From the NCBI RefSeq assembly GCF_015057185.1, contig NZ_SVEV01000014.1, positions 1-64,000 of the forward strand: DNA of 64,000 bases, read 5' to 3'. A model generated the notes under the pieces. That model searched no databases and was not told the DNA's origin. It was given only the letters and a program-made list of their open reading frames with translations. The number at the start of each line of letters is the position of its first letter. Position 1 is the first letter of the stretch. Origin of the DNA: Pseudobutyrivibrio sp. Its GTDB lineage: Bacteria > Bacillota > Clostridia > Lachnospirales > Lachnospiraceae. This document shows positions 46-25,505 of the stretch, piece after piece. Both the position numbers and the translations under genes were made by a program.

Positions 46-1530
46 TTACGCAATGAAGGCAAGCGGGCGAACGCCGAAGGCAGCCGAAGCACCGCTGTAG
101 CGCGAGTTGCCGCTGCGGTCCACGTGGCACGCGGGAGCAGAGGACGCGACATTCTTGGTCCAAGTATGTCTAGCGTATTGAGTGTTAGCAATATCACCAA
201 GGAAGTCCTGATAACTCATGCCCGCCTTAAAGATTGCAAGCTGTTCTTTTTGAACTCCTGCATCATAACCACTAGACTCAAATCCATCTCCTCCAGTAAG
301 ATTCTGAATAGAAGGGAGCGTGCATTTCTTTATTGCTGAATTATCGCTTGAATCATACCATGTCCAACTACTTGAAGCTCCTGCCCATGCGCTGTAGCCT
401 TTGCATGAAGCGGATGTGTTAATTGCGTTTGTTTCCAAATTGTAGAAGCTCAATACCTTAATTCCATGATCTACGAAATCAGCCTTGAGCCAGTTAGTGT
501 ATACCTTAGGCAATACTGTGTTTCTGATGTAAGAGCTATGATAAGCTCCTGTAGTATCATTTGCACCTACACCCGTTCTGCTTCCTGATGTAGCTTGCCA
601 TGGTGCGCAGCCTTGTACTGTGTTAATAGTTGTGTCTCCGGTCCATAATTGGCCTGCCCACAGAAGTTCAGATACTCCTATTAACTGTTGTGGCATTATT
701 GCTAAGTGATGTGTGCTTTCAGCGTAATCTGTTTGGCCAAACCCGCTAGTTCTATTGCCATACCAGTAATCCAAATCAACTATCCACCACTTAGTGCCTG
801 TAGTCTTTCCAATAATATAGTTTCCAGGATTTACGTCTGAGAAATCACCTGCTGCGATTTTTGTTCTTAGTTCTGAGTCTGCTGCATAAATCTCGTCAGA
901 GATATTTTTAATCACAATAAGTCCATTTTTTTCTGCTGCTGTCTTTCCTAAGATAGCTTTTTTGTACACCAATCTGAGGATTGCCTTAATTGTGCCATCC
1001 TCAATATCGCTAATATCTGTGTCTCCTAAATCAGTCTCTATGGTGTCAATTCTATCCAATACATCCTCGAACATCTCGATTGTTGGTGTTGCGGCTGGGT
1101 TTGTTGAAATGACTACAGAGCTTGAATTTGAAACCTTAACATCAAATGTGTAACTATAGCCCGTTGGTGTCTCGCCGCTAACATATGCTGGCATCCAGTC
1201 AGGATGTTCATCCGCAATACTTACAGCGTATAAAATTTGATTTCCATCTCCATCTTCAGCAATGAGGCCTATCGCATTGATATAATATGCCTCTTGTACA
1301 CTTGTGTTATCCACTCTAGTAAACACCTTAACTGTTTTACTATCTGTGATGGATGTTCCAGACACTAAGGTTGTTTGTTCCACATCTTCCAATGATTCAA
1401 GCGTTGCCAAATCACCAATTGTATATGTGTGTGATGATGTCTGAAGGTTAGTGAAAGTAGCTGTCGTTTCATTAGCTATCAGTCTGGTCATCAAATCTTG
1501 ACCAGCGTTTGTAATTACTAAGTCTTGCAT
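46..1530 (-). CDS. Phage tail fibre with C-terminal DGR-variable domain
   Basis: 494 aa, last gene of the tail module and directly downstream of the gpI-like baseplate gene, the usual position of a receptor-binding tail fibre. Residues 1-150 resemble the N-terminal domain of phage tail-collar/fibre proteins (opening MQDLVITNAGQDLM). Residues about 150-230 are helical and linker-like. The rest, rich in Trp, Tyr, Gly and Ser, ends in a DUF6273-like module closing with FGVRPLAF. Residues 460-489 form the variable repeat described separately, so the receptor-contacting tip is probably rewritten by a diversity-generating retroelement. It starts at ATG 1530, preceded by GGAGGATAAC. The fibre role is inferred from position and N-terminus; the variable tip is seen by comparison with the gene at 24954-25505. 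Confidence 0.88.
   Translation of the reverse strand: MQDLVITNAGQDLMTRLIANETTATFTNLQTSSHTYTIGDLATLESLEDVEQTTLVSGTSITDSKTVKVFTRVDNTSVQEAYYINAIGLIAEDGDGNQILYAVSIADEHPDWMPAYVSGETPTGYSYTFDVKVSNSSSVVISTNPAATPTIEMFEDVLDRIDTIETDLGDTDISDIEDGTIKAILRLVYKKAILGKTAAEKNGLIVIKNISDEIYAADSELRTKIAAGDFSDVNPGNYIIGKTTGTKWWIVDLDYWYGNRTSGFGQTDYAESTHHLAIMPQQLIGVSELLWAGQLWTGDTTINTVQGCAPWQATSGSRTGVGANDTTGAYHSSYIRNTVLPKVYTNWLKADFVDHGIKVLSFYNLETNAINTSASCKGYSAWAGASSSWTWYDSSDNSAIKKCTLPSIQNLTGGDGFESSGYDAGVQKEQLAIFKAGMSYQDFLGDIANTQYARHTWTKNVASSAPACHVDRSGNSRYSGASAAFGVRPLAFIA
64..153 (-). repeat. DGR variable repeat 1 (VR1) in the tail fibre
   Basis: Encodes fibre residues 460-489. Against VR2 (24975-25064) 75 of 90 bases match with no gap. 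The 15 differences all lie at first or second codon positions, affecting residues 460, 466, 469, 470, 472, 473, 475, 477, 478, 480 and 483; no third position differs. Nine of these eleven codons end in C or T in both copies. That is the pattern expected when AAC/AAT or GAT codons of a template repeat are altered at adenines. Neither copy has A at all differing sites, so neither can be the template. Patchy similarity continues 3' of the repeat to the hairpin with a one-base indel. Confidence 0.85.
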
Positions 1531-1541
1531 TGTTATCCTCC

Positions 1542-2183
1542 TTAAGCTGTTGTTATTTGAATATGCTTGCTTCTTGTAACACCGCCTGCATATTTAATTT
1601 CTGCTTCTAATTCATAATTAGATGTATCAATAGTTCTTAAATGAATGTGTTTTCCTTTGACCATTCCAGCACCATACTTAACTTGGCCATCGAGGTTCCT
1701 TGCTACCTCTACCTCATCCATTACTGATCTTGCTGCTTTTACCTTCTTTATTACATTCGTAAATACGGTATTTGCATCTTCAGTTAGGACATCATAGATA
1801 ATAGGTTTGAAGTGATATGGTTCTCCGCTGTATTCGTACCAAGGCTTAAACTCTGCCTTCGTAAATACGATATCAAGAAGCTGGCCAATTGCTTTTTGTG
1901 TGCCAGCATATCGTTGCATAGCCAATGATGTTTGCAATAATTTAAGCTTCATATCATCGTCGTATTCTGAGCGATAATATGGAGCTTTTATACATAGAGC
2001 TATGTAATCGTAATACTTAGGGTCTACATTTTCTAAATCTGACCAAACCGTAAGTTGATTGGCCAAAGCGTGAAACTTTTTCATCTGCTTATCCAACGCA
2101 TACCCGAAACATTCAGATTCAATATCCTGAATATTAGGAGGTAATGATAAAAAAGTACTTCCTAAATCATCAAAGTTGTACAT
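1542..2183 (-). CDS. Phage tail protein I (P2 gpI-like baseplate protein)
   Basis: 213 aa. The N-terminal part (YDYIALCIKAPYYRSEYDDDMKLKLLQTSLAMQRYAGTQ broken around residues 65-105) matches the P2 gpI family, which sits at the baseplate edge and joins tail fibres to gpJ. It lies between gpJ and the tail fibre exactly as in P2-like phages. I chose ATG 2183 because AGGAGG lies 6-7 nt upstream; an earlier in-frame ATG at 2216 lies inside the gpJ coding end and lacks a ribosome site. The C-terminal 60 residues repeat a pattern (YGAGMVKGKHIHLRT, YAGGVTRSKHIQITT), a short internal duplication that may form the fibre-binding end. Confidence 0.85.
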   Translation of the reverse strand: MYNFDDLGSTFLSLPPNIQDIESECFGYALDKQMKKFHALANQLTVWSDLENVDPKYYDYIALCIKAPYYRSEYDDDMKLKLLQTSLAMQRYAGTQKAIGQLLDIVFTKAEFKPWYEYSGEPYHFKPIIYDVLTEDANTVFTNVIKKVKAARSVMDEVEVARNLDGQVKYGAGMVKGKHIHLRTIDTSNYELEAEIKYAGGVTRSKHIQITTA

Positions 2184-2193
2184 TCTATACCTC

Positions 2194-3351
2194 CTACTCT
2201 TTATCGTATCCGCCAAATGTCAGTGAGATATTTGAGCAGATAGCTACTTCATCCTCTTCTACTGCTATGTACTCTGGAGTTGTAATAACAATTCTCGAAC
2301 CGCCCGCAGCGTTTACATAGGATCTCAAAATATCAGGATTAATTGCGCGGCCAATCTTACTCTTTGTGTACTCAGCAAATTCATCTGCTGAATCCTCGAT
2401 GGCTTCTTTTATACCATCAGCTATTTCTTTCTTATCTTCTGGCAAATAGTATGTAGCCTCTATTTGGTAATCAACAGCTGTTGGGGCTTTCATTTCCACC
2501 TTGTCTGTATCAGGTGTCTTTTGTAGTTCCATAATGAAGTTATACACGTCTTCAAGATAAGCTGTTGTTGGTAGCGTTCCGTTCTGTAATAAGATATATA
2601 TCTGAACTACAGCCTCATCGCTCGTGATTATCTTTGCGTCAACAATATTGCTGCTATACGCCTTTGCAAATTCCTCATATGCACCTATAGGTCCAGCTGA
2701 TGAGTATATGTCTGAGAAATTGAATATCAACTCTCTAAGTTCTTGGTCGGTATATTCATCGTGGCCACCTGCGCTCTCAGTTGTATTTTCAACACTAGCA
2801 ACTAAGTTTACTGGGTCAGTAATAATATTTAATTGACCTTCGATATATCCGTTGCCTTTGGTTCCCTCTTCGGTGCAGGTTGCGGCTGTATCTCCATACA
2901 GAGAGCCTGCTGGGATTACCAAATCTTCATCTGTTGCAAAATAAATATGGTCTCCACATGTTGCTCTTGTTCCTGCAGGTACTGTTATATCCACCTGCTG
3001 CACTGCTGCAAGAGTAAACCTAAGTGTTACAGTAGCAGCTTCTAGGCCACTTTCTGTGTATCCAAAATTAGCAGCCCAATTCTTAAGGAATGAACCATAC
3101 ATGTACTGAATAAAGTTCAGCTTATGTCGTTCATTCATTATGGCTGCTAATTGATATATCTTGCCCGCTGTTGTAGCAATCATTAACCTTCTTGAGTCGG
3201 CTGGATATAAGGTTAATTCCTCGCCCGTGAGTTCCTTATACCTTGCCTCGTAGTCGGCTATCATTTCATTTGTTATCGACTCTATTGTTATTCCCTCATC
3301 ATCCAAAAGATTGATTTCAGGCAAATTATCTAGTGCACTAATATTAGACAT
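2194..3351 (-). CDS. Baseplate J-like protein
   Basis: 385 aa, the usual length for the gpJ/Baseplate_J family that forms the outer wedge of contractile-tail baseplates. Typical elements are the N-terminal segment ending in the ELTLYPADSRRLMIATTAGKIY region and the central TDPVNLVASVENTTESAGG(H)DEYTDQELR motif (about residues 195-225). ATG 3351 is preferred; the longer reading frame begins at TTG 3357 with no better ribosome site. The start overlaps the end of the gp25-like gene by 8 nt, suggesting translational coupling in the baseplate operon. Confidence 0.9.
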   Translation of the reverse strand: MSNISALDNLPEINLLDDEGITIESITNEMIADYEARYKELTGEELTLYPADSRRLMIATTAGKIYQLAAIMNERHKLNFIQYMYGSFLKNWAANFGYTESGLEAATVTLRFTLAAVQQVDITVPAGTRATCGDHIYFATDEDLVIPAGSLYGDTAATCTEEGTKGNGYIEGQLNIITDPVNLVASVENTTESAGGHDEYTDQELRELIFNFSDIYSSAGPIGAYEEFAKAYSSNIVDAKIITSDEAVVQIYILLQNGTLPTTAYLEDVYNFIMELQKTPDTDKVEMKAPTAVDYQIEATYYLPEDKKEIADGIKEAIEDSADEFAEYTKSKIGRAINPDILRSYVNAAGGSRIVITTPEYIAVEEDEVAICSNISLTFGGYDKE

Positions 3352-3631
3352 TTCCAATCACCACCTTTGCGTTATTATCGTCTGTAAACTTAACCTCAGA
3401 TACTTTCACTCTGTCTTCCCATATTCCACACTGGGTGATAACCTCGGTGGCGTATTGGTTCTTTGCTACGTCAGAATCCGTTTCCGGCGGATATTTTTTT
3501 ATTCCCATAGACCTCATGTAAGGAGCTGTGCCGTAAGGGGTGCTCGCGATGGTACTGATGCTATTTTCTATAGCATCAATTTCTGTCTCTGTCATTGTTC
3601 TTTTTCTATCTTCTGAATACTCTAATGTCAC
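3344..3631 (-). CDS. GPW/gp25-family baseplate wedge protein
   Basis: 95 aa. The motif STPYGTAPYMRSMGI (about residues 30-45) is the hallmark of the T4 gp25 / P2 gpW lysozyme-like baseplate wedge family, which connects the sheath to the baseplate. Length is typical (90-130 aa). It sits between the U-LysM gene and gpJ as in other myoviruses, and its end overlaps the gpJ start. Confidence 0.88.
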   Translation of the reverse strand: MTLEYSEDRKRTMTETEIDAIENSISTIASTPYGTAPYMRSMGIKKYPPETDSDVAKNQYATEVITQCGIWEDRVKVSEVKFTDDNNAKVVIGNV

Positions 3632-3642
3632 TGGCTACCTCC

Positions 3643-4284
3643 TTACTTTGGTATTGTTAGTACTTGCCCAGGATATATGAGATTTGGATTCTTAATTATG
3701 CTTTTATTGGCGTTATATATCTTGGTGTACTGACTACCTTTTCCATAATACTTCTTTGCAATATTCCATAAGCAGTCGCCTTTAACAACGGTGTAAGTAT
3801 CACTGGTTGTTGCCTTTGGAGTTTGCGTCTCTCCTATAGTGGTTGCTGGTGGTATTGTATCTATTGCTGCCACCTGATTAGCATACTCTTTTAGAGTTAC
3901 CTGGAATCCAATTGCAATTGGTCTTCCATCGGTATGAAGAATCTTGTATGTCTCTGTTAAATTTGTTATCACAAACGGATTGTCACCTACTTGTTTGCCA
4001 CCCAAAACAAAGTTCTCGGCTGTGCCTCCCGATTTCTGCTGATAGAGCTGGCCTTCTACCTCGAGTGGTTTAACTCCAAAGTTTGCATTTGCTTCTATGG
4101 ACATGGTTAATTCATCTAATCCATCTGCATTAAATTCCAAATACGACTTCTCGCCGTTTCTCTCATGCTCTGCAAATGAAGCTGTAGAGCTCCTTGATAA
4201 ATCATGGAATGAGAGTATCTGATTCCTATTTGAAACAGATTTACAATAAAAATTGATATCCCCTAAGCTTCCTACATTTGACAT
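3643..4284 (-). CDS. gpU-like tail protein fused to a LysM domain
   Basis: 213 aa. Residues 1-135 look like the P2 gpU / Mu gp43-like tail protein group (ITNLTETYKILHTDGRPIAIGFQVTLKEY near 105-135). A Thr/Pro-rich linker (140-160) leads to a clear LysM domain at 163-213 (YTVVKGDCLWNIAKKYYG...NPNLIYPGQVLTIP). LysM binds peptidoglycan or acts as a hub module in tails. In P2, gpU and the LysM-like gpX are separate; this phage has a LysM fused here and also a separate gpX at 5688-5909. Confidence 0.82.
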   Translation of the reverse strand: MSNVGSLGDINFYCKSVSNRNQILSFHDLSRSSTASFAEHERNGEKSYLEFNADGLDELTMSIEANANFGVKPLEVEGQLYQQKSGGTAENFVLGGKQVGDNPFVITNLTETYKILHTDGRPIAIGFQVTLKEYANQVAAIDTIPPATTIGETQTPKATTSDTYTVVKGDCLWNIAKKYYGKGSQYTKIYNANKSIIKNPNLIYPGQVLTIPK

Positions 4285-4288
4285 CTAA

Positions 4289-4663
4289 TCACCCCTGCGT
4301 AAGTGTTTTATAAACAAGTTCATCCACAATCATCTTTTTGGCCGTAAATTCCATTTCTTTAGATGTTGGTGTGTACTTCATCATTGTTCCATCACTAAAC
4401 TCTTTTACAAATATCTCTGGTCCCGTTTCTGAAGGTGCGTTCCCGTCCAAAAAGATTTTTCCAAGAATTACGCCTTTTCCTATTTGACCATTAATCTCTT
4501 CAAATAACGCTGCTACTGTATCACCAGCGCTTGGCATCTCGTAAAACATCGATAAAAATGGCACTGAATTAATCACCGCATTTTCCTTATCAGGCAATGT
4601 GACATTCGCTGTACCTGAGGCATAATTGATGGATGATATCTTTGCATAAAATAAAGTTGCCAT
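4289..4663 (-). CDS. Small baseplate assembly protein (gpV-like spike or hub)
   Basis: 124 aa. The N-terminal half is an OB-fold-like segment (AKISSINYASGTANVTLPDKE...VPFLSMFYEMPSAGDTVAALFEE), typical of phage baseplate gpV / gp45 proteins that form the membrane-piercing spike hub. It is shorter than P2 gpV (about 210 aa), so the tip may be reduced. It lies between gpD and gpU as expected. The family assignment rests on the N-terminal pattern and on order. Confidence 0.72.
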   Translation of the reverse strand: MATLFYAKISSINYASGTANVTLPDKENAVINSVPFLSMFYEMPSAGDTVAALFEEINGQIGKGVILGKIFLDGNAPSETGPEIFVKEFSDGTMMKYTPTSKEMEFTAKKMIVDELVYKTLTQG

Positions 4664-4671
4664 GATACCTC

Positions 4672-5688
4672 CTAAAAATCTGTAACAGTAATATGAGCTG
4701 TAATTGAAACGGTATATTTGCCGCTTGATTTAGAATGCGTCACGGAATCTATGAAATACTTTCCATCAAGCTTTCCAAATCCTTTTAGATTAAAGCAATC
4801 CGCAGCCATATACTTAGCGCTTCCCATCATCTTCAAGGTGACGGTTTGACTGTTTCGAATATTCTCTCTAAGAGCTGCTTTTGCCTTCTTTTCAGCGTCA
4901 CTGTACGACTCTGCTTTTGTGGTCAAAAACAGTTGTCGATTACCTTCTTTGCCAGGTATCGTATACTCATAGGTTAAGGTGTCTCCCTTTTTGCCATTGG
5001 TATATTGCACCTTTACGCTGTCATATACTGTTGTTATTTGCCTATTGATTTTGTATGAACCGCTTCCGCCAAATATTGAATGATCTATATCATATCTAGC
5101 TTCCTTTTGCTCATACACTGTCTGGTCATACACGACTATCTTTTGGTTATATAGCTTTATAGCTAGTCCATAGTCGCTGCAAAGTGAATATGCAAATGCT
5201 AAGTCTGTCTTTCCTGTCTGATTTACAGAATCAACACTTATATCCTCTGCATCAAAAACAAGCGATATCCCTGCGCTTGCAGCAATATCGCTCATGATAG
5301 TTTTAACTGTGGTTTTTTCCCAGCTCTTATTCTTTTGTTTAACGTTAAAATTGCAATCGGTTGGAGTGGATATACCTGATAGGGCCAGCTTTTCAGGAAA
5401 ACCATCATAGCTTAATGAATCAACCATGAAGGTTCCACAAAACAGTTTTCCTGCCTTGTAATCAGCCGCCCATTCTGATAGTTGAATCCATGCTTTAAAC
5501 ACATCCTTATCCGATGGAAAATAACCATTCATCCACTTCTGACCTATATTGCTCAGATTAAGTGTTACAGTATCAGCTGAACCTGTGGCGTTATCTTTCC
5601 ATGTGAAGGAATTGCAATCATCTGCGATAATATCTGTTGCTTCCACGCCGTTGTACTCAATTAGGAGTTTAGACTTCATTGTATCCAT
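4672..5688 (-). CDS. Phage late control gene D protein (gpD, tail hub)
   Basis: 338 aa, normal for the phage protein D / YqbQ-XkdQ family, a structural homologue of T4 gp27 that forms the baseplate hub around the spike. Typical elements are DTVTLNLSNIGQKWMNGYFPSDKD near residue 40, KTTVKTIMSDIAASAGISLVF near 125 and TVYDSVKVQY near 220. Its start overlaps the stop of the gpX gene upstream. 'Late control' is only the historical family name; a structural role is meant. Confidence 0.87.
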   Translation of the reverse strand: MDTMKSKLLIEYNGVEATDIIADDCNSFTWKDNATGSADTVTLNLSNIGQKWMNGYFPSDKDVFKAWIQLSEWAADYKAGKLFCGTFMVDSLSYDGFPEKLALSGISTPTDCNFNVKQKNKSWEKTTVKTIMSDIAASAGISLVFDAEDISVDSVNQTGKTDLAFAYSLCSDYGLAIKLYNQKIVVYDQTVYEQKEARYDIDHSIFGGSGSYKINRQITTVYDSVKVQYTNGKKGDTLTYEYTIPGKEGNRQLFLTTKAESYSDAEKKAKAALRENIRNSQTVTLKMMGSAKYMAADCFNLKGFGKLDGKYFIDSVTHSKSSGKYTVSITAHITVTDF

Positions 5689-5909
5689 TATTCGCTATCC
5701 CTCCATGGAGCAATATCATCTGATGTAGACTCCTCTGAAACCTCTGGACACCACACTTTTGTACCTGCAGAAAAAATATAGATTGATAATAGTTCTCTAT
5801 TCTCTTCTGCATTCAACAAAACCTCGACCTTAGTCTCATCTTTATATACAATCCATGCGATATAATCCCACATGTCGCCTTGTTTTGTCTCGTAATAATA
5901 GCCGCCCAT
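5688..5909 (-). CDS. Tail protein X (P2 gpX-like)
   Basis: 73 aa. YYYETKQGDMWDYIAWIVYKDET and the later SIYIFSAGTKVWCPEV match the LysM-like gpX family, small baseplate proteins in contractile-tail phages and type VI-related systems. It sits between tape measure and gpD with a one-base overlap onto gpD, the standard P2-like order. Confidence 0.85.
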   Translation of the reverse strand: MGGYYYETKQGDMWDYIAWIVYKDETKVEVLLNAEENRELLSIYIFSAGTKVWCPEVSEESTSDDIAPWRDSE

Positions 5910-5917
5910 ATTGCCTC

Positions 5918-8900
5918 CTAGCCAAATGCTACTCTATTATCTTCTCGTTGAATTTCGGTAAGCATTTCTCTTAAATCTTCAAGTGTAAGAGATAAAGCAG
6001 ATGATATATCCTCTCTAGATGCATTGCCCTGAACCGTAATAACTGGATTGAAAGATACGGTAAAATTGCTACCGCCCTGTCCCGAGCTGCCACCGCTTAA
6101 TCTAGCAAGGCTGTCGGTTACTCTATTTGAATTAACACCTAATAGTTGGCCTGCCTGCTGCCATAAGCTATAAGCTCTGCTTGAACCATCAAGCGGAATA
6201 ACAGCTTCTGGTCCCTCTTCCGCTAACCATGAAATTTGAGTATCATTTACAATTCCTCCATTTGCATGACCTGGAATACTAACTCCTGCATCTATCAACT
6301 GCTGCATCGCATCTAATTGAGATGAGCCTGAAGAATTATTATAATAATCCAATAAGTTTTGGCGTGTTTCATTAACATCGGCGACAAGTTGTGCATTAAT
6401 TGAAATGGTTGCATCAATAGCACCATTTTCCAATCCTTCTTGTATTCTCTGCCTTACTAAACTTGTAGTTTCATCTAACAGCTCCATGTTTTCAGGGGTT
6501 GTCATAGCGTTAGTTATCTCTTCTGGAATATATGCGTAAGCTCCTTCAGCCGCTGCCATTAATTGAGCATATTCATCATTATCCTGCAAGCTCAATCCTA
6601 ATAATGAATATATAGCAGTTTGGTCGCCTGCAGCTGCACCTATTGAGTATATACTTTCGATTGCATCTTGATATTCTTGTGGTACATCTACTCCTAGTTC
6701 TTCCAGCTTTTTCTCCGTCTCAAGCAGTTGTTCTAGTGTTGGCTGCAATCCCTCGTACAGCTCTTCTATATCATTTGTCTTACTACCTAAAACATCCTTC
6801 GCCGCATCTTCAGCGTACAGATAAGCATTATCCAATGCGCGTGTAAAATCGCTTGGATCAACATAGCTTTGTTCCGCTATAGACTCCATGCTGCTGCTCA
6901 AACTTGCATTGACAGCGTCTATCGCACTTTGAATATCATCATCCGCGTATGCGCTCATAATGCCTTGTATTTGGGCATTAGCTGCTTTCAACTCAGCCTC
7001 GCCTACATTTTGCCTGTAACCTTCTTTTAATGAATTAATGGCTTCCTCATAGCCTTCTGCCATTGTGCCATCATCATTTGTGTAAGCTGCTGTTATTGCT
7101 GCGTAATTATCTACATAATTTTGTTCTGCAGCCTCTTTGATTGATTCAAGGTTCTCGCCTAGTTCGTCTTGCATGGCTGCAAAACTTTCAGGCGTTAGAT
7201 TGCTCCAATCATATTCAACGTCAAGTAGTGATACTTGAGCGTCAAATCTACCTTGAGCTATTCTTGCTTGAACCTCAGCAATCTTAGCTTGGAGTTCTGT
7301 TATATTATCAATTTCCGATGGATCTAATACACCGTCACTGAATGCCTCATTAACCGCTTCGGCCAACTGGGTTCCAAGGCTAGCCATCTCTTCTTGATTA
7401 AGTCTATAGAACTCATCAACCTTAGATATAATATCAGCAGAGTTTTCAGTGTCTGATAGTCCGGCACTTAGGCTTACTGTTACGGCATATCTTTCCTGCT
7501 CGATATAATCGTTTGCATTCTTGACATAATCATCAATTGTTGCTTGATAGTCTTCCTCGTCCTCTTCTGTGAGTTCGATTCCAACTTTAACCATCCAATT
7601 ATATTTATCTATTTCAGCAAGGGCATCCGCCATATCTTCTGCGAAACTATCTGCATCAGCAAACTCTTCTAGTGCTGTTTTCATGCCCTGAATAGCTCCA
7701 GTATTTGTGATAGCTTCAGCTACTCTTTCAATTTCATCCATTGAAAGAGCTATATCACCGAAATGCTCCGCTAGACTTGCTTCTGTTGCTTCTCGTTCAG
7801 CGTCTTCGAGAGCTCCTACTATAGCTGTTAAGCTTACAAGAGCCAAACCTCCTGCTGCAACTGCTGCATTTAATGGATCAACTAAAAGCTTTGCTAGCTT
7901 AATGCCTGTTACAGCGCCTTTGATTAACAGTACTCCTGTTGCTACGCCTTTAAGGGCTCCTATTAATGCTCCTCTGTTTTTAATAATCCATGAGCCAGTT
8001 GCTACTCCATCTTCCCAAAGCTGTTCGATTCCATCTCCCATGTCTTCAAGAAGTTCAGCAAACTCTAATTCATGAGCCTCAGCAAATGCTACAATGGAGT
8101 CAGTCGCGTTTGGAAGTTCGTCTGATAACCAGAATAGTGTCTCTTTTGCGCTATCAGAGAAAACGTCTGTTACTCTGATTTGCATATCTTCTTTAGCTGA
8201 ACGTAATCTAGCTTCTGCCATTTCAAGAGTGTCTGTAGCTATTCCATACATTCTCTCTAAAGCCCCAGAACTGTTTTCTACGTCAGCTTCTAATTCATCC
8301 CATGCAACGCTTGCTTTTCCAGCATCATCTATAGTTTCTTTGACAGAATCTAGTAAATATGAGAATTGTGAATACCTACGAGTACCCGCAATCTTTGCAA
8401 GGCTCTGAGCCTTTTCTTCATCAGTCATACCTTCCATGGCTTCATTGATATTAATCAATGTCTGCTCGAAGCCTACAAAAGCCCCCTGTGAATCCCAGAG
8501 ACTTACGCCTATTCTGTCTAATTCGCCAATAGCAGTTGAGTTACCTGCTATTCGAACGAATATTGAATTTAAAGCTGTACCAGCCTCTTCGGCTTTCAAA
8601 CCGTTGTTAGCCAGAATATCAAGTGATGTAATTGTATCGTCGAGTGATACACCTAATACTCTTGAAGCACCACCGGCCTTAACCAAGCCTTCCATTAACT
8701 GTTCAGCTGTTGTATTCGCATTATTATTTGTGGCGATTAACTTATCCAAATATGTATCTAGATCTGTTACCTCAAGACCTAATGCATTCATTGAATCTGT
8801 CACTAAATCGCTTGTTGTTTGTAATTCTTTTTGAGTTGCTGCCGCTAAGTGAAGAATAGGATTTAACGCCTGCAAAGACTCCTCTACTTCCCATCCTGCA

Positions 8901-9256
8901 AGTGACATATACTCAAATGCTGATGCTGATTCTTCTGCCGTATATACGGTAGCTCTTCCAGCATCTAGAGCAGCCTCTCTCATGTCCTCATACTGTCTTG
9001 CGTTTGCGCCTGAGATTGACTGGACTGTAGCCATTTCTTGCTCAAATCCTTTATAGGTTTCTGTAGCATCTGCAATGGCTCTTGCACTGGCATAGGCTGC
9101 CGTCGTTGCGCCAGCAGCCATGCCTAGCATTATTCTATTTGCTACTTTATTTAATCCCTCTAAATCTCTTTCAGCTTGACCTAGTTTGCTTTTCCAACTA
9201 GTCGAGGTAGTCGCCCCCAACTTCACCATTAACTCATATGTAGTTTTGTTGGCCAT
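5918..9256 (-). CDS. Tail tape measure protein (TP901 family)
   Basis: 1112 aa, the largest prophage gene. Residues about 60-350 match the TP901 tape-measure core (FEQEMATVQSISGANARQYEDMREAA, YTAEESASAFEYMSLAGW, GTALNSIFVRIAGN). Hydrophobic stretches around 430-490 probably insert in the host membrane during DNA ejection. The middle is Ala/Glu-rich helix. The C-terminal WLAEEGPEAVIPLD motif near 1010 is characteristic of Firmicutes tape measures. The length would fit a tail of roughly 150 nm by the general 0.15 nm per residue rule, which is an inference. Confidence 0.93.
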   Translation of the reverse strand: MANKTTYELMVKLGATTSTSWKSKLGQAERDLEGLNKVANRIMLGMAAGATTAAYASARAIADATETYKGFEQEMATVQSISGANARQYEDMREAALDAGRATVYTAEESASAFEYMSLAGWEVEESLQALNPILHLAAATQKELQTTSDLVTDSMNALGLEVTDLDTYLDKLIATNNNANTTAEQLMEGLVKAGGASRVLGVSLDDTITSLDILANNGLKAEEAGTALNSIFVRIAGNSTAIGELDRIGVSLWDSQGAFVGFEQTLININEAMEGMTDEEKAQSLAKIAGTRRYSQFSYLLDSVKETIDDAGKASVAWDELEADVENSSGALERMYGIATDTLEMAEARLRSAKEDMQIRVTDVFSDSAKETLFWLSDELPNATDSIVAFAEAHELEFAELLEDMGDGIEQLWEDGVATGSWIIKNRGALIGALKGVATGVLLIKGAVTGIKLAKLLVDPLNAAVAAGGLALVSLTAIVGALEDAEREATEASLAEHFGDIALSMDEIERVAEAITNTGAIQGMKTALEEFADADSFAEDMADALAEIDKYNWMVKVGIELTEEDEEDYQATIDDYVKNANDYIEQERYAVTVSLSAGLSDTENSADIISKVDEFYRLNQEEMASLGTQLAEAVNEAFSDGVLDPSEIDNITELQAKIAEVQARIAQGRFDAQVSLLDVEYDWSNLTPESFAAMQDELGENLESIKEAAEQNYVDNYAAITAAYTNDDGTMAEGYEEAINSLKEGYRQNVGEAELKAANAQIQGIMSAYADDDIQSAIDAVNASLSSSMESIAEQSYVDPSDFTRALDNAYLYAEDAAKDVLGSKTNDIEELYEGLQPTLEQLLETEKKLEELGVDVPQEYQDAIESIYSIGAAAGDQTAIYSLLGLSLQDNDEYAQLMAAAEGAYAYIPEEITNAMTTPENMELLDETTSLVRQRIQEGLENGAIDATISINAQLVADVNETRQNLLDYYNNSSGSSQLDAMQQLIDAGVSIPGHANGGIVNDTQISWLAEEGPEAVIPLDGSSRAYSLWQQAGQLLGVNSNRVTDSLARLSGGSSGQGGSNFTVSFNPVITVQGNASREDISSALSLTLEDLREMLTEIQREDNRVAFG

Positions 9257-9484: not shown

Positions 9485-9843
9485 TTCAAACCATTGAAAA
9501 ATTCAATTGGAAGATTTGTGACTCTCATCGCGATATGCTTTGTATAAGTGATATCCTTATACTTGTTTGCTGGGTGATAGTTTAATTTATTCATCACCCT
9601 GTCGATGTACTCAGCATCTAGAGTAGTTAAATCCTCTAGTCCGCTTAGGTCTACTTCCTTGATTTTCTTTCCGTCTAAATCGTATTCCTTTGATAGCTCT
9701 ACGATATATGGAAGCTTGCTGTTGAGACTTGTTGACTCGCTTTCTAAAACTTCCTTAGACGCCTCTGTAGCTGTTGCATCAGCTGCCGCCTCAACACCTG
9801 CTACCTCTTCAATTTCTGTATTATTCATTACCTCTTTACTCAT
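9430..9843 (-). CDS. Tail assembly chaperone (P2 gpE-like)
   Basis: 137 aa between tail tube and tape measure, the invariant position of the chaperone. The acidic Ala-rich N-terminus (residues 1-40) is followed by a small globular part (YIVELSKEYDLDGKKIKEVDLSGLEDLTTLDAEYIDR) typical of the phage tail assembly / DUF2765-like group. It ends FLF-stop right after the T-TTT-TTA slippery heptamer. It starts at ATG 9843, preceded by AAGGAGG. An intrinsic terminator just upstream (9867-9893) separates it from the highly expressed tube and sheath genes. Confidence 0.82.
   Translation of the reverse strand: MSKEVMNNTEIEEVAGVEAAADATATEASKEVLESESTSLNSKLPYIVELSKEYDLDGKKIKEVDLSGLEDLTTLDAEYIDRVMNKLNYHPANKYKDITYTKHIAMRVTNLPIEFFNGLKWKDMYAITARITVHFLF
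9436..9442 (-). promoter_or_regulatory. Programmed -1 ribosomal frameshift site T_TTT_TTA
   Basis: In the chaperone frame the codons are CAT TTT TTA TTC TAG. A -1 slip on T_TTT_TTA re-pairs as TTT TTT, avoids the stop at 9430-9432 and continues into the frame ending at 9269. The heptamer fits the X_XXY_YYZ rule and lies where P2- and lambda-like phages carry this switch. I did not identify a clear downstream pseudoknot by eye. Confidence 0.8.
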
Positions 9844-18129: not shown

Positions 18130-18139
18130 GTTTCCTCCT

Positions 18140-18382: not shown

Positions 18383-18384
18383 TT

Positions 18385-21036: not shown

Positions 21037-21082
21037 AAAAGAGTGCTCAAGCCTCTTGATCCTGAAGCTTGAGCACTCTTTT
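21037..21082. terminator. Strong bidirectional hairpin terminator
   Basis: Perfect 16-bp arms AAAAGAGTGCTCAAGC (21037-21052) and the complementary GCTTGAGCACTCTTTT (21067-21082), with A-run and T-run at the two ends, so it can terminate in either direction. It lies in the gap between the head operon and the rightward island. Confidence 0.85.
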
Positions 21083-21256
21083 ATTTCTTACTATTCAATT
21101 GCTATACTGAACCAGCTTATTAATCACTAGAAAGTATTTTTACTCTATTAATTATCCCTGGACCATACATCCAGGACATCCGCCCATGATGCCTGGATAT
21201 ATGCCCGCAACATTATTGTAAAGGGAGTAAGAAATGCGCAAACAGCAAAATAAAAG

Positions 21257-21274
21257 CGGCGGAACTTTCCGCCG
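21257..21274. terminator. GC-rich hairpin with T-rich flanks
   Basis: Arms CGGCGG (21257-21262) and CCGCCG (21269-21274), extendable by AA/TT, are followed by TTATCGTTTTGTCTTT on the plus strand and by CTTTTATTTT on the minus strand. It is probably a second insulating terminator beside the one at 21037. Confidence 0.6.
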
Positions 21275-21533
21275 TTATCGTTTTGTCTTTATTGCTTAAT
21301 ATCATTATAGCACCGTTCAAGCGAACAAAACGAACACTTTTAATATATACATTTCTTTTTCTATGGCTTTGTGAATTGCTTTTGATTATCTTCTCACTTT
21401 TTATTATTCATTCTCTTTTTTGGGATTGCTTGCAAACTTTTTTCAAAAAATTTTTCAACTAATTTTTCTTAGTATTTACAAGGCTTTGGGGCGCTTCCCA
21501 AAAATCTTTCTAAAACTTTTTTGAAATTTTTGC

Positions 21534-21563
21534 TTGACATTGCAGACCAGTGGGCTGTATTAT
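21534..21563 (+). promoter_or_regulatory. Sigma-70 promoter of the rightward island
   Basis: TTGACA (21534-21539), an 18-nt spacer and TATTAT (21558-21563) on the plus strand, downstream of two terminators and upstream of three rightward genes. An independent promoter of this kind is typical of prophage moron genes expressed in the lysogen. Confidence 0.65.
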
Positions 21564-21653
21564 TGAGTCACAGCAAGGCAATCAAGCCAAGCTGATTCAA
21601 ATAGAAAGCAGGTGATAGCAATTAATAAGGAACTAGAAAAGAGGGTAAAGCTT

Positions 21654-21797
21654 ATGACAAAAGCCAACTTGGAATTTACCGAAAGAGTTTTAAAACTCAT
21701 TGAAGAGTGGGAACGTGACGGACTCCCACAAGAGCAGATAATCAAATACTTAAACATCTTAGAAGGACAAAAAGAAAAGCCAACCACTAAGGGCTGA
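21654..21797 (+). CDS. Small helical protein of the rightward island
   Basis: 47 aa from ATG 21654 (GAGG 9 nt upstream); a GTG at 21612 would give 61 aa but is too close to its only purine-rich sequence. The product (ANLEFTERVLKLIEEWERDGLPQEQIIKYLNILEGQ) is an amphipathic two-helix peptide of unknown function. It is the first gene after the island promoter. Confidence 0.55.
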   Translation: MTKANLEFTERVLKLIEEWERDGLPQEQIIKYLNILEGQKEKPTTKG

Positions 21798-21819
21798 CTC
21801 TTCACTACAATCTTATAGG

Positions 21820-21848
21820 TTCGGGGCGGCTACCTGCTCCGCCTCGAA
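21820..21848 (+). terminator. Hairpin between island genes
   Basis: Ten-pair stem TTCGGGGCGG (21820-21829) with CCGCCTCGAA (21839-21848), one G-T pair, 9-nt loop, lying between the 47-aa gene and the J-domain gene. The following sequence is only weakly T-rich, so it may act as an attenuator or mRNA-processing structure rather than a full terminator. Confidence 0.4.
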
Positions 21849-21905
21849 TCTAAATTCATTATAGCAGGGGATAGCGAATAATTCAATTAGTAGGAGGTAT
21901 TTATT

Positions 21906-23522
21906 ATGAGTAAATTTTTTAAGAATATCCAGAGCTTAGAGCAGTTAAAGAACAACTATAGAGATTTATTAAAGGCTAATCATCCAGACAACGGCGGAGA
22001 CCTTGAAACAATGCAAGATATTAATTGTGAGTACGACGCACTTTTTACTATCTGGAAAAACAAAGAAGCTTCTACACTTACAGAGGAGCAGAAAAAGGAA
22101 ACTGCAGCATCTTCAAGAAAGCATTTCTATACACAGTTTGGTTGGGCTGGTAGCCGTTACGATGGAAACCTTACACTTAAAGAAATTGCTAAGATAGTTA
22201 GAAACTATGTAAAAGAGCAGTATCCAACATGTAAATTTTCTGTAAGAACCAAATACGCTTCAATGTGTCAGGAGCTTATAGTTGATTTAAAAGAGTTTCC
22301 TTCTCAGATGTTCAAGACTGGCGAAGATCTCAAAAATGAAGGCATAGATTACAATTGTGATTCTGTTCGTCAATGTATGCGCCGCATGGAAGCCAACGAC
22401 CTTTGGTCTTTAACTTGCTGGGATGATGATGATTTTGTAAAGGCATATGATAAAGCCCTCGAAGTTAATGCTGAATTCTACGGAATCATGACAGATTATT
22501 TTAAGAGCGTTGTTGATGATGTTAACACATTTGTAAACTCTTACAACTACGACGATAGCGACAGTATGACAGACTACTTTGATGTTAATTTCTACTTCTT
22601 TGGATGTGGTGTCAATGGTTGTAAATATGTACCAAAGACTGCAAGGATCAAGAACCATGAAAATAATGTGACACCTTCAGAGCCTTCCGAAAATGTTGAA
22701 GATGTAAACTATACAATCGAAAAATCAGAGCACACAAAGACAGGCGAAACAATTTACTTAGTAAAACCAGTTGAACGCATGGATCATGATACATTCAACA
22801 GCGAGCGACAGCGAATGAAGGAGAACGGAGGATATTACAGCAAGTTTACACATAGCTTCGTATTCAAAGAATATCCTAGCTTTTTAGATGCTGAGCCTGA
22901 GCAGATTGAATCCGTTGAGCCTGAAACATGTGAAGCAGCTGAAAGCACCGCCGAAGGTGCCCAGGATGAAACAGAAGTTTTAGAAATATCTGAGCCAGTG
23001 GCAGAGCCTGAGAAAGAGACGGCAGAGCATACCGCAGAGCCTGAACAGGGGCAGCAGGAAAATGTTTTAGATAGCTTTTTCAGAAGATACGGCAGCCCTT
23101 CAGAATTTGCAGAGCACACTTTGCATCTATACGCACACAGGGCCAGCGGCCTACATACTGAGGCGGACATATTACGAGAAATAAAGCGAGCTGATGACTT
23201 TATGAAAGATTTGCAGCACTACATGGAATGCCTTAAAGCGCATCAGGCGGAACTTGTAAAGCAATACAACTTTATAGCTACCAGCCCAACAAAAAACAAA
23301 ATCAGGCTTGAGCGCAAGAAAAACAGCTGGACCAACAAAGTAATGTATAGCATCATTTACTTTACTGTTAACTTGAATGATTTTTCAGAGACCGAGAGCG
23401 GCCGCGAATCATTCGAGGGCAAGGAACGCAAGAAGGCGCTGGATCGCTTTGCGGAGCTTGAAGCCTCTCACCCTGATTATATCTTGGAAAAGGATATAGA
23501 AAAAGCGCGCTGGGAGCGTTGA
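21906..23522 (+). CDS. J-domain and LPD29-like polyvalent-type protein
   Basis: 538 aa, start supported by AGGAGG. Residues 8-50 are J-domain-like with an HPD motif (LKNNYRDLLKANHPDNGGDLETMQDINCEYDAL), the DnaK-contacting signature. Residues about 75-205 resemble the LPD29 domain of phage and mobile-element polyvalent proteins (YPTCKFSVRTKYASMCQELIVDLKEF). Residues about 330-390 are a Glu/Pro/Ala-rich low-complexity spacer. The C-terminal 150 residues are basic and helical. LPD-type domains occur in proteins delivered with phage or conjugative DNA, often counter-defence; that role is inference. Rightward and promoter-linked, it stands apart from the leftward phage operons. Confidence 0.65.
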   Translation: MSKFFKNIQSLEQLKNNYRDLLKANHPDNGGDLETMQDINCEYDALFTIWKNKEASTLTEEQKKETAASSRKHFYTQFGWAGSRYDGNLTLKEIAKIVRNYVKEQYPTCKFSVRTKYASMCQELIVDLKEFPSQMFKTGEDLKNEGIDYNCDSVRQCMRRMEANDLWSLTCWDDDDFVKAYDKALEVNAEFYGIMTDYFKSVVDDVNTFVNSYNYDDSDSMTDYFDVNFYFFGCGVNGCKYVPKTARIKNHENNVTPSEPSENVEDVNYTIEKSEHTKTGETIYLVKPVERMDHDTFNSERQRMKENGGYYSKFTHSFVFKEYPSFLDAEPEQIESVEPETCEAAESTAEGAQDETEVLEISEPVAEPEKETAEHTAEPEQGQQENVLDSFFRRYGSPSEFAEHTLHLYAHRASGLHTEADILREIKRADDFMKDLQHYMECLKAHQAELVKQYNFIATSPTKNKIRLERKKNSWTNKVMYSIIYFTVNLNDFSETESGRESFEGKERKKALDRFAELEASHPDYILEKDIEKARWER

Positions 23523-23545
23523 GGATATGTTATTATTTAACTATC

Positions 23546-23631
23546 CTGCTGCAATTGCTCAGCTTCAAAAAATGTTTTTAGATGCTGCTGCAATTGCCAG
23601 CCTTTAAAAATGTTTTAGATACTGCTGCAAT
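23546..23631 (+). repeat. Degenerate tandem repeats, unit about 38 bp
   Basis: Two full units begin CTGCTGCAATTG at 23546 and 23585 and both run through AAAAATGTTTT-AGAT. A partial third unit (CTGCTGCAATG) starts at 23622 and runs into the TTGCACCGGTGCAA palindrome. The array occupies the gap before the small HTH gene and may be a regulator-binding or iteron-like array. It could also be decayed duplicated coding sequence. Confidence 0.55.
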
Positions 23632-23635
23632 GTTT

Positions 23636-23649
23636 TTGCACCGGTGCAA
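23636..23649. promoter_or_regulatory. Copy 2 of the prophage palindrome TTGCACCGGTGCAA
   Basis: Exact copy, 50 bp upstream of the start of the small HTH gene at 23699 and at the end of the tandem repeats. This position would suit autoregulation by that HTH protein, which is an inference. Confidence 0.55.
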
Positions 23650-23698
23650 TTTTATGTTTTGCTGTCCTACCGGCTACACGGGGAGAAATGAGGAAATT

Positions 23699-23887
23699 AT
23701 GACCATTAAAGAAATGCGCCAGCTCTTAGGACTAAGCCAGGTTAAGTTTGGCCAAAAGTATAATATCCCTGTTCGCACTGTTCAGCACTGGGAAGATGGC
23801 GACAGAAAATGTCCAGATTATGTTTTATTGCTTCTTGAAAGATGTGTTTTAGAGGATGCCGAAAATGAGCGAACAGAGAGCCGTTAA
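23699..23887 (+). CDS. Small HTH (XRE-like) DNA-binding protein
   Basis: 62 aa. TIKEMRQLLGLSQVKFGQKYNIPVRTVQHWEDGDRKCPDYVLLLLERCV is a compact helix-turn-helix of the type found in phage and toxin-antitoxin regulators (recognition helix around VRTVQHWE). ATG 23699 is chosen over an upstream start at 23582 because the upstream part is repeat sequence and GAGAAATGAGG precedes this ATG. It is the last gene of the rightward island and is followed by a strong terminator. Confidence 0.75.
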   Translation: MTIKEMRQLLGLSQVKFGQKYNIPVRTVQHWEDGDRKCPDYVLLLLERCVLEDAENERTESR

Positions 23888-23902
23888 TGCTCTCTGTTTT
23901 TT
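23873..23902 (+). terminator. Intrinsic terminator of the rightward island
   Basis: ACAGAGAGC (23873-23881) pairs with GCTCTCTGT (23889-23897), followed by TTTTT. It overlaps the stop codon region of the HTH gene. Confidence 0.85.
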
Positions 23903-23989
23903 ATGTCCTCTCAGCCCTGATGTTTATTAAATGCGAGCTTGCTTTAATTGACAATGCTTTTATTTATGTCTTTTAAAAGTATGTCACAT

Positions 23990-24217
23990 TTAATATTTAT
24001 GCAGGCTGCGCTTTACTTTTTTCCACCATCTAATTAAGTTTTCTATCGCTTTTAGTATTGGCTCAATGATTTTATCTACCAGCTCGTGCATATATTGTTT
24101 AGCTAGATATGACTCAAATCCGACTGAGTCCCTATAGTATATGTACTCCAGTGGGTCAATACTTTCCATGCGTAACTCTTCTCTAATATACTTTTCGAAG
24201 TACTCTTCTTCACTCAT
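23990..24217 (-). CDS. Small hypothetical early-region protein
   Basis: 75 aa, not recognised. The acidic N-terminus (MSEEEYFEKYIREELRMESIDPLEYIYYRDSVGF) is followed by a helix and a basic Trp-rich end (KAIENLIRWWKKVKRSLHKY) that could touch membrane or nucleic acid. GAGGGTG precedes the start. It overlaps the sigma-like regulator gene by 8 nt, so the two are probably co-translated. Confidence 0.55.
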   Translation of the reverse strand: MSEEEYFEKYIREELRMESIDPLEYIYYRDSVGFESYLAKQYMHELVDKIIEPILKAIENLIRWWKKVKRSLHKY

Positions 24218-24656
24218 CTTTCACCCTCTCTAGAAACCTTGTTATCTCCATGCGCACAGCGTCAGCTGTGTTACCTGGTCCTAAGCTCTTGGCCACCTCT
24301 GACCATTCTTTATTGTCCACGTAACGAAGTCTCATGATTAGGCGCTTTCTGCTGTCCTCGATAGTGTCAATGTATACCTCTACTTCATCCAATGCTATGT
24401 CTAGCTTTTGTTTTAGATTCTCAAGTCTGAACTGTCTTTTTAAAAGCAATGTCTTTTTTTCTTGGTATTCCGGATAAGGGAAGCCCTCGATTTTAAAATG
24501 TTGTGTTCCACCCATTCCGCCGTTAACACTATCTTGCACTAGATACTTGTTGTCAAACTTCTCTAGCTCTTTTAGATTATGCTGTATACGTCTTTCGGTA
24601 TCCTCATATTCTCTTTTGATGTCGTCGTATTGTTCTAGTATGCTCTTTCTCATCAT
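24210..24656 (-). CDS. Sigma-70 region 4-like late transcription regulator (ArpU/DUF1492 type)
   Basis: 148 aa. The N-terminal two-thirds are coiled-coil helices. The C-terminal IEDSRKRLIMRLRYVDNKEWSEVAKSLGPGNTADAVRMEITRFLERV (about 98-145) resembles the sigma-70 region 4 HTH of the phage ArpU/RinA/DUF1492 group, activators of late (packaging and structural) transcription. It lies at the downstream end of the leftward early operon, where such regulators usually sit. The terminase operon in the same direction follows after the rightward island. Confidence 0.72.
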   Translation of the reverse strand: MMRKSILEQYDDIKREYEDTERRIQHNLKELEKFDNKYLVQDSVNGGMGGTQHFKIEGFPYPEYQEKKTLLLKRQFRLENLKQKLDIALDEVEVYIDTIEDSRKRLIMRLRYVDNKEWSEVAKSLGPGNTADAVRMEITRFLERVKDE

Positions 24657-24687
24657 TCCCCCTATCCTGCTGCAGCGCGCAGCAAAA

Positions 24688-24843
24688 CTATTGGTTTATA
24701 TGTTTTTTCAAGTCCTCTAATATTTCTTTGTAGGCTTCCACCTTTCCGTTAGCTACGCCGTTAAAGAATCCCGTCTCTCTGCCTGTTACCTCCTTCTGGG
24801 CTTCTTCTAGCTTCTTTGAATACTTCTCATACAAATCTTTCAT
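24688..24843 (-). CDS. Small helical protein downstream of the second variable gene
   Basis: 51 aa from ATG 24843, preceded by AAAGGAGG at 6 nt. The sequence KDLYEKYSKKLEEAQKEVTGRETGFFNGVANGKVEAYKEILEDLKKHI is a helical hairpin of unknown function. A longer reading of the frame would run through the second DGR variable repeat in another frame and is rejected. In DGRs a small helical accessory protein (Avd) often lies next to the variable gene. This one is much shorter than Avd (about 120 aa), so I do not call it Avd. Confidence 0.6.
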   Translation of the reverse strand: MKDLYEKYSKKLEEAQKEVTGRETGFFNGVANGKVEAYKEILEDLKKHINQ

Positions 24844-24926
24844 AACTGCCCTCCTTTCTGCGGAGGCGCTAACCTCCGCGTACTTGTGGTATAAATGGTA
24901 TAAAAACATGAACACTTTGTTATTGT

Positions 24927-24944
24927 CGCCCCACACGGGGGGCG
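24927..24944 (-). other. GC-rich hairpin downstream of DGR variable repeat 2
   Basis: Six-bp stem CGCCCC (24927-24932) with GGGGCG (24939-24944), 6-nt loop, directly downstream of the stop codon of the second variable gene. The arm sequence, loop length and distance from the repeat match the hairpin at 12-42, and the flank AATTCCGCCCC is shared. Conservation of both repeat and hairpin in two otherwise unrelated genes supports a role as retrohoming target. Confidence 0.7.
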
Positions 24945-24953
24945 GAATTACTG

Positions 24954-25505
24954 CTAACGCATTAAGAGGCAAGCCGGGCGAACGCCGAAGGCATGCGAAG
25001 CAGCGCTGGAGTGCGAGTGGCCGTAGGAGTCCAGGCGGCACGCGTAAGCAGAGGACGCGACATCAGCAAGCCACCACCAATCACTATATTTTCCGTTGTA
25101 ACCTTCTTGAGCTATGCGCTTGTGATGGTTCTTGAACATGTCTAGCATGTTTTCACCATCGAATACCTCTGCCTTTGTTAAAAGTCTCAGGTAATCTCCG
25201 TTTGAATCTTGTTTGATTGTTTCCTTGAACCAATCTGGAAGAGTCTTGTAAACCACCTCATTTAGATACTGTCTGATGTCACTGTTCAAGTAGCCTCCTG
25301 CTGTAGTTCCATCCTCATTCCAGGCAATGTCTTCGCCTAGCGTATGAGTCCACACAACTAGGATGCAATCATCTTCTACGGTTGCCACTTCTACCTCGTG
25401 AGTGTTTCCATCAATATCCTGAAATGCGAATCTATCACCCTGCTGCAATTCGCTCATGTTATTAACTGACTGTTCTATAGTTCTTGTAATCTTTAATGCT
25501 TCCAT
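24954..25505 (-). CDS. Second DGR-type variable protein (DUF6273-like domain)
   Basis: 183 aa, ATG with AGGAGG. The whole protein looks like a DUF6273-type C-type-lectin-like domain: GDRFAFQDIDGNTHEVEVATVEDDCILVVW (21-50), GGYLNSDIRQYLNEVVYKTLPDWFKETI (70-97), YLRLLTKAEVFDG, then SDWWWLADVASSAYACRLD and the closing FGVRPACLL. Residues 148-177 are the variable repeat shared with the tail fibre. It has no signal peptide, membrane segment or tail-attachment domain and lies in the early region between an HD enzyme and a late regulator. It is therefore unlikely to be a virion fibre; what it binds is unknown. Confidence 0.8.
   Translation of the reverse strand: MEALKITRTIEQSVNNMSELQQGDRFAFQDIDGNTHEVEVATVEDDCILVVWTHTLGEDIAWNEDGTTAGGYLNSDIRQYLNEVVYKTLPDWFKETIKQDSNGDYLRLLTKAEVFDGENMLDMFKNHHKRIAQEGYNGKYSDWWWLADVASSAYACRLDSYGHSHSSAASHAFGVRPACLLMR
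24975..25064 (-). repeat. DGR variable repeat 2 (VR2)
   Basis: Encodes residues 148-177 of the second variable protein. It aligns without gaps to VR1 (64-153): 15 of 90 bases differ, all at codon positions 1 or 2, changing residues 148, 154, 157, 158, 160, 161, 163, 165, 166, 168 and 171 and leaving every third position identical. Similarity stops at once 5' of the repeat and continues 3' to the hairpin. This is the signature of two target repeats fed by one template. Confidence 0.85.

What the first reader, a model, noticed from the sequence alone, without database searches (positions are those of the whole stretch)
64..25064. Two DGR variable repeats 25 kb apart with only codon position 1/2 differences
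Segments 64-153 and 24975-25064 align without gaps over 90 bases (30 codons). All 15 differences fall at codon positions 1 or 2 and none at position 3, changing 11 residues. Ordinary divergence would put most changes at third positions. Codons of the form NNC/NNT changing only in the first two bases are the signature of adenine-directed mutagenic retrohoming from AAC/AAT template codons. Neither copy has A at all differing sites, so both must be targets of a third, template, sequence. One phage DGR therefore appears to feed two genes.
Basis: partly seen in the sequence, partly recalled or inferred. Interest (0 to 1): 0.93.

Follow-up and report, generated by a model that had tools for sequence, protein, structure and literature searches.

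The report
One mutator feeds two phage proteins
A virus that likely lies dormant in a gut bacterium (likely Pseudobutyrivibrio) has two genes 25 kb apart, a tail fibre and a small protein encoded outside the tail gene block, whose ends both match one adenine-rich template that sits beside a reverse transcriptase on a virus contig identical wherever the two were compared, so a single mutation machine likely keeps rewriting both; such two-target machines are already known, but what the second protein does is not.

Summary
Observation confirmed. Window 64-153 and 24975-25064 align without gaps; 15 differences fall 7/8/0 on codon positions 1/2/3. The template is absent from this assembly, whose contig ends at window base 1; a reverse transcriptase, cut at its start, begins another contig, C47. 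A viral contig (L004) 100% identical to both contig ends spans the 1,006-base gap with an Avd-like ORF, the template and the RT start. VR1 has 15/15 and VR2 15/16 substitutions at template adenines (22 of 88 sites; p about 5e-12, 8e-11). A relative holds template, VR1 and distant VR2 on one contig. A database variant of target 2 differs at 10 residues, all inside the repeat. So this is a phage DGR with two targets, a known kind. My addition: 14 of 28 DGR records surveyed have a distal adenine-specific repeat (C or G controls 0 of 28), mostly in small DUF6273-type proteins lying near replication, recombination, regulator or methylase genes (11 of 15 cases), so a non-virion role is likely but unproven.

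The parts
46..1530 (-). Target gene 1: 494-aa tail fibre protein behind the baseplate genes; VR at its 3' end
   Evidence: PHROG tail-fibre family over residues 1-147; ORF
58..151 (-). Variable repeat 1 (VR1)
   Evidence: 15 of 15 substitutions against the template in 64-151 are at template A, plus two more at 58-63
16..37 (-). 8-bp GC-rich hairpin, 6-base loop, 26 bases past the end of the 90-base segment
24954..25505 (-). Target gene 2: 183-aa standalone DUF6273 protein; no hydrophobic signal or membrane stretch in a crude hydropathy scan
   Evidence: Pfam PF19789 48.3 bits; phrog_21980; hydropathy
24975..25062 (-). Variable repeat 2 (VR2)
   Evidence: 15 of 16 substitutions at template A, one at a template G (25034)
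24927..24944 (-). 6-bp GC hairpin, 6-base loop, 30 bases past VR2
24210..24656 (-). Neighbour of target 2: phage transcriptional regulator family (phrog_36)
25514..26149 (-). Neighbour of target 2: phosphohydrolase-like protein (phrog_5889, phrog_28876)
33560..34342 (-). Replication initiation protein, 8 kb upstream in the same run of minus-strand genes
   Evidence: phrog_3584
37261..38565 (+). Integrase (phrog_95; also matches DNA invertases, so likely serine type), likely marking this end of the prophage
2194..3357 (-). Baseplate J protein (tail module of the same prophage)
   Evidence: PF04865
5918..9256 (-). Tail tape measure protein
   Evidence: PF10145, PHROGs

Best explanation
This is a likely prophage diversity-generating retroelement in which one template, found beside one reverse transcriptase on a phage contig identical wherever compared, matches variable repeats in two genes 25 kb apart and is therefore likely copied with errors at its adenines into both. 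Shown by sequence: the two repeats, the template, the RT, the adenine pattern, hairpins behind both repeats and none comparable behind the template, and a database variant that differs in target 2 only inside the repeat. Inferred: that the RT reads the template RNA, that the mutated cDNA replaces VR1 and VR2 (mutagenic retrohoming, as described for phage BPP-1), and that C45 and C47 are neighbours in this strain. Target 1 is a tail fibre, so its rewriting would change what the phage binds. Target 2 is a small, probably soluble DUF6273 protein beside a regulator gene, outside the tail block; my best guess is that it works inside the cell as a hypervariable binder, for example against host defence or rival-phage proteins, rather than in the virion.
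For: VR pair 7/8/0 by codon position. RT in own genome at C47:1-930, the only RVT_1 hit; GxxxSQ and YxDD invariant in 8 aligned RTs; best PDB sequence match 8ub7, E 3.5e-6. L004 identical to window 1-8994 and to C47:1-2142, with the template and RT start in the 1,006 bases between. 15/15 and 15/16 substitutions at template A. Relative G030: template, VR1 and VR2 on one 50-kb contig, 14 and 13 A-site changes, 0 others in 60 bases, all three sharing a silent T-to-C. Database variant P0001: 10 differences in 183 residues, all in the repeat, 9 at A-codons, the tenth being the window's own change at 25034. Hairpins behind the VRs. Survey: distal A-specific repeat in 14 of 28 records, C- or G-specific in 0 of 28. 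Neighbourhoods of distal targets. Ten of 16 distal targets were scanned for membrane segments: highest 19-residue hydropathy 1.12, against 2.8 and 3.1 for two membrane-like control ORFs.
Against: The template is not in this genome's own assembly. VR2 has one substitution at a template G. Database relative P0002 has 4 of its 15 in-repeat differences outside A-codons and 7 differences elsewhere. The Avd-like ORF has no Pfam match. Hairpin loops are 5-6 bases, not the 4-base GRNA reported for other phage DGRs. The same-genus G007, with an RT 79% identical, shows no target-2 homologue besides its VR1 gene (genome 89% complete). In the survey control 4 of 28 records gave an adjacent G-specific copy, probably the VR read as template. 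On target 2's role: 4 of 14 aligned proteins match a Hoc-like head-decoration family (best E 3.2e-13; the window's own 0.0056), and in G047 the distal target lies right behind the terminase gene. P0001's own genome was not seen. No expression or activity data.
Confidence: 0.92

Rival explanations
1. Two-target DGR as above, but target 2 is a second virion part (a minor adhesin or capsid decoration) made from a gene outside the structural block.
For: DUF6273 domains also occur in Hoc-like and tail targets; 4 of 14 aligned proteins match phrog_10993 Hoc-like decoration, best E 3.2e-13; authors of PMC10743442 propose that the nd4/nd12 second targets bind the host (passages).
Against: In 11 of 15 cases it lies near replication, recombination, regulator or methylase genes; it is a short protein without an added Ig or tail domain in the alignment.
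Confidence: 0.25
2. VR2 is a relic: it was once homed from this template but is now fixed.
For: One non-adenine change in VR2; no activity data; no target-2 homologue found in G007.
Against: P0001 differs from the window protein only inside the repeat; in G030 a silent change in the template is shared by VR1 and VR2; hairpin kept with another stem sequence in G030.
Confidence: 0.07
3. No DGR: two paralogous gene ends under ordinary diversifying selection or gene conversion.
For: Both proteins end in a similar domain (phrog_21980 in both).
Against: A third non-coding adenine-rich copy beside an RT; substitutions at template A 15/15 and 15/16; no third-position changes.
Confidence: 0.01

Closest known systems
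Roseburia phage Shimadzu (LR596903)
   Same: Same order tail fibre - Avd - template - RT - lysis; one template, adjacent tail-fibre VR and a distal VR in orf43 beside Erf recombinase
   Different: RT 32% identical; target 2 27% identical over 73% of its length
Faecalibacterium phages Lelie and CP11 (PMC11792537)
   Same: A large and a small DGR target, both with DUF6273 (paper); a VR 16 kb from the template found here in Lelie
   Different: In Lelie the near VR lies downstream of the RT; the authors leave the targets' roles open
Quimbyvirus (PMC8008677)
   Same: [quoted passage not shown]
   Different: Quimbyviridae with Bacteroides hosts; RT split over overlapping ORFs; target on the opposite strand; not compared by sequence here
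Four gut prophage species with distal second VR (PMC12629997)
   Same: Distal VR near counter-defence genes (passages)
   Different: Not compared by sequence here
Phages nd4 and nd12, tentaclins (PMC10743442)
   Same: One template, two targets with DUF6273 (paper); distal VRs found here
   Different: Their target 1 is a tentaclin with Ig domains and a VR near the 5' end
Bordetella phage BPP-1 DGR
   Same: Mechanism taken as the model; hairpin past VR (PMC3240598, passages)
   Different: One target, mtd (recalled); 4-base GRNA loop

Membership tests
Diversity-generating retroelement | RT of the DGR type (GxxxSQ motif, recalled as the DGR hallmark; YxDD) | tested here: met
   Invariant G.GS..SQ and Y.DD in 8 aligned RTs; RVT_1 43.5 bits
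Diversity-generating retroelement | Non-coding template repeat beside the RT | tested here: met
   L004 about 9509-9602, between Avd-like ORF and RT; absent from the own assembly, which has a gap there
Diversity-generating retroelement | VR substitutions confined to template adenines | tested here: met
   VR1 15/15, VR2 15/16
Diversity-generating retroelement | Accessory protein Avd | tested here: inconclusive
   155-aa ORF, 27% over 73 aa, E 3e-8 to a protein annotated Avd in Shimadzu; no Pfam match
Diversity-generating retroelement | GC-rich inverted repeat just past VR | tested here: met
   8- and 6-bp stems at +26 and +30; template side has only a 5-bp stem at +67
Diversity-generating retroelement | 4-base GRNA loop of phage DGR hairpins (PMC3240598) | tested here: not met
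   Loops of 5-6 bases; a sub-feature, described in that paper for the phage DGRs it compared
[quoted passage not shown]
   [not shown]
Diversity-generating retroelement | Active mutagenic retrohoming | not testable with these tools
   Needs reads or an assay
Tentaclin (PMC10743442) | N-terminal C-lectin with VR, then Ig-like domains | tested here: not met
   Both targets here carry the VR at the C-terminus; no Ig domain in the Pfam scan

The most novel reading that the evidence does not exclude
The distal DUF6273 proteins form a shared family of DGR-rewritten intracellular phage proteins, made early in infection or in the lysogen, that bind and neutralise fast-changing host defence or rival-phage proteins: a second, inward-facing arm of hypermutation, beside the outward-facing tail fibre, fed by the same template.
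Probability: 0.35. Interest if true: 0.82.

Novelty: new member of a known kind. Interest (0 to 1): 0.5.

Why it matters
Why a phage mutates a second protein besides its receptor binder is called unclear in print (PMC10743442 abstract; PMC11792537 discussion passages). This locus and the survey show the second target as a recurrent small protein, mostly placed near replication, recombination, regulator or methylase genes, which turns the question into a direct test: is it in the virion, and what does it bind? If it works inside the cell, phages would use targeted hypermutation against host defences and not only for host range.

Tried and rejected
Template in the own assembly: not found with VR1 or the L004 template (besides the two VRs only 14-base matches at E 4.6). 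Third VR in this genome: none found in those two searches. Target-2 relatives in IMG/VR by pattern: none confirmed. Target 2 in 50,697 phage records by tblastn at E 0.01: one record, Shimadzu. C-type lectin fold: Foldseek in PDB gave no match at or below E 0.001 and the 9 rows of the VIA re-alignment name no lectin, which excludes nothing. Papers: no paper holds two of the terms Pseudobutyrivibrio, diversity-generating retroelement, Butyrivibrio phage; of 12 listings shown of 66 for second or distal targets and early genes I opened only PMC8008677. A first structure model from 11 sequences was weak (69.5) and replaced.

Bias to keep in mind: the 28 surveyed records are RT relatives chosen by me, 8 records behind the 21 viral loci, one genome contig (G013:C177), and 19 of the phage records found (77 matched, some of them duplicates); 14 of 28 is not a frequency among all DGRs. 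The window's own phage is not among the 28, as its template is not in its assembly. Three records were read short (Toutatis 50,000 of 54,725 bases; G013:C177 40,000 of 42,767; G047 40,000 of 40,388). Five records gave no adjacent VR at the strict threshold though a looser one showed a candidate. The Helicobacter prophage gave weak distal candidates (5-6 adenine changes) that fail the strict threshold. The variability profile over 911 pairs of target-2 relatives uses representatives clustered at 90% identity, which favours pairs that differ in the repeat; I do not lean on it.

Papers: PMC11792537 passages and section 30; PMC10743442, PMC8144416, PMC12629997, PMC8008677, PMC3240598 passages only; all others search listings only.

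Full report
What was checked. They differ at 15 of 90 sites, 7 at codon position 1, 8 at position 2, none at 3.

Where the template is. The window begins at base 1 of contig C45 of the genome G000, so the DNA to the left is missing. G000 has one RVT_1 hit, at the first bases of another contig, C47, in an ORF open at its 5' side. A viral contig, L004 (IMGVR_UViG_3300021318_000159), is 100% identical to window 1-8994 and to C47:1-2142, in the order tail fibre, gap, RT. Its 1,006 bases between the two hold a 155-aa ORF, an adenine-rich repeat between ORFs and the start of a 394-aa RT ORF. I infer that C45 and C47 are neighbours in this strain; the pieces were not joined.

Adenine pattern. In the 88-base tract the template has 22 A. 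VR1 departs from it at 15 sites, all A; VR2 at 16, of which 15 are A and one (window 25034) is G; chance probabilities 5e-12 and 8e-11. All template A lie at codon positions 1 or 2 (codons printed), which explains the missing third-position changes.

Independent copies. In G030 (the record of L005, IMGVR_UViG_2814123322_000002, 50,207 bases) the template, an adjacent VR1 and a VR2 about 19 kb away lie on one contig; 14 and 13 adenine changes, no other change in 60 bases, and a silent T-to-C that sets this template apart from L004's is present in both VRs. The protein database holds P0001, identical to target 2 at all 154 residues outside the 29-residue repeat and different at 10 inside it; 9 come from codons with a template A and the tenth is V, the template's residue, where the window has L. 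P0001's genome was not seen. A second relative, P0002, has 15 differences inside and 7 outside, four of the 15 not at A-codons, one of these again the window's L. Both VRs here are followed by GC-rich hairpins (8 bp at +26; 6 bp at +30); G030's VR2 hairpin has 8 bp with another stem sequence; behind the template there is only a 5-bp stem at +67. Such a hairpin is needed for efficient target recognition in BPP-1 (PMC3240598, passages), but the loops here are longer than the GRNA loops described there.

The RT and its partner. Eight aligned RTs keep G.GS..SQ and Y.DD; that GxxxSQ marks DGR RTs is recalled. The best PDB sequence match is 8ub7, named Reverse transcriptase; that this is the BPP-1 DGR enzyme is recalled, and one search did not confirm it. 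The 155-aa ORF resembles the protein annotated Avd in phage Shimadzu.

How general. A script that looks near the RT for a template and anywhere in the record for a 60-base copy with at least 9 mismatches on one base type and at most 3 others found a distal (over 5 kb) adenine-specific copy in 14 of 28 records and none in 28 for cytosine or guanine; adjacent copies were found in 23 of 28 for adenine, 0 for cytosine and 4 for guanine, the last probably the VR read as template (pairs shown). The 14 are G030, G042, G013:C177 (two distal copies), G047, G034, Shimadzu, Toutatis, Fontainebleau, Lelie, Brigit, nd4, nd12, MT835491 and Dulem virus 34. With the window that makes 15. A replication, recombination, regulator or methylase gene lies within about 2.5 kb of the distal gene in 11 of 15 (window; Shimadzu 40; Toutatis 41; Fontainebleau 42; Brigit 83; nd4 84; Dulem34 85; G042 and G013 100; G034 and MT835491 101); in the window that gene is a regulator, and the replication initiator is 8 kb off. 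G030's lies just upstream of the terminase large subunit, G047's directly behind it, and those of Lelie and nd12 among unannotated genes. Only a part of the neighbours was scanned in the unannotated records (20 proteins). Of 14 aligned proteins (the window's, four database relatives and nine distal targets) 13 match DUF6273 and 13 phrog_21980. Ten distal targets, of 16 counting the window's, were scanned for membrane segments and none showed one (controls).

Host. Same-genus G013:C177 has the length of JAGBJE010000038.1, Pseudobutyrivibrio sp., and G007 starts a contig with the same letters as SVES01000043.1, Pseudobutyrivibrio ruminis, at the same RT identity (79%), so the host is likely Pseudobutyrivibrio.

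What is known. [quoted passage not shown] Lelie and CP11 with large and small DUF6273 targets, with Shimadzu cited as a further case (PMC11792537); nd4 and nd12 (PMC10743442); four prophage species with a distal VR near counter-defence genes (PMC12629997). Roux et al. note that their survey would not detect remote targets (PMC8144416). So the finding is a new member of a known kind. What I did not see stated in the passages I read is that distal targets of many of these gut phages are one recurring small DUF6273 type, mostly placed near replication, recombination, regulator or methylase genes.

Reading. The two-target DGR is close to certain by sequence (0.92); its activity is inferred. For target 2, position, likely solubility and the lack of an added anchor domain favour a role inside the cell, at about even odds; a decoration or adhesin role remains possible.

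Noticed in passing
L004:8985-10080 against L006; L004:8985-10880 against L005: The DGR core (Avd-like ORF, template, RT start) is 97-100% identical between L004 and L006 and 93-100% between L004 and L005, while blocks outside are mostly 55-90% alike, as if the core moves between phages as a unit; this may also explain why contigs of G000 and G007 end at the same homologous bases.
   Followed up: partly
L024:4600-5000: L024 matches the window phage at 100% in blocks up to the last part of the tail-fibre gene and then switches to the L006 type including an identical VR1; recombinant or assembly chimaera.
   Followed up: no
L057:4084-5825: G013:C177 carries two neighbouring distal targets besides its adjacent one, three VRs from one template.
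   Followed up: partly
L066:14757-15356: In G047 the distal target lies directly behind the terminase large subunit gene and before an HNH endonuclease, unlike the others.
   Followed up: no
window 24927-24944; L007 behind 8906: Hairpin loops CCGTGT/CGTGT recur behind VR2 here, VR2 of G030 and VR1 of L007, differing from the GRNA loop of other phage DGRs.
   Followed up: no
window 21906-23522: 538-aa plus-strand protein with an LPD29 domain and a stretch matching a DNA methyltransferase PHROG.
   Followed up: no
[not shown]
   Followed up: no
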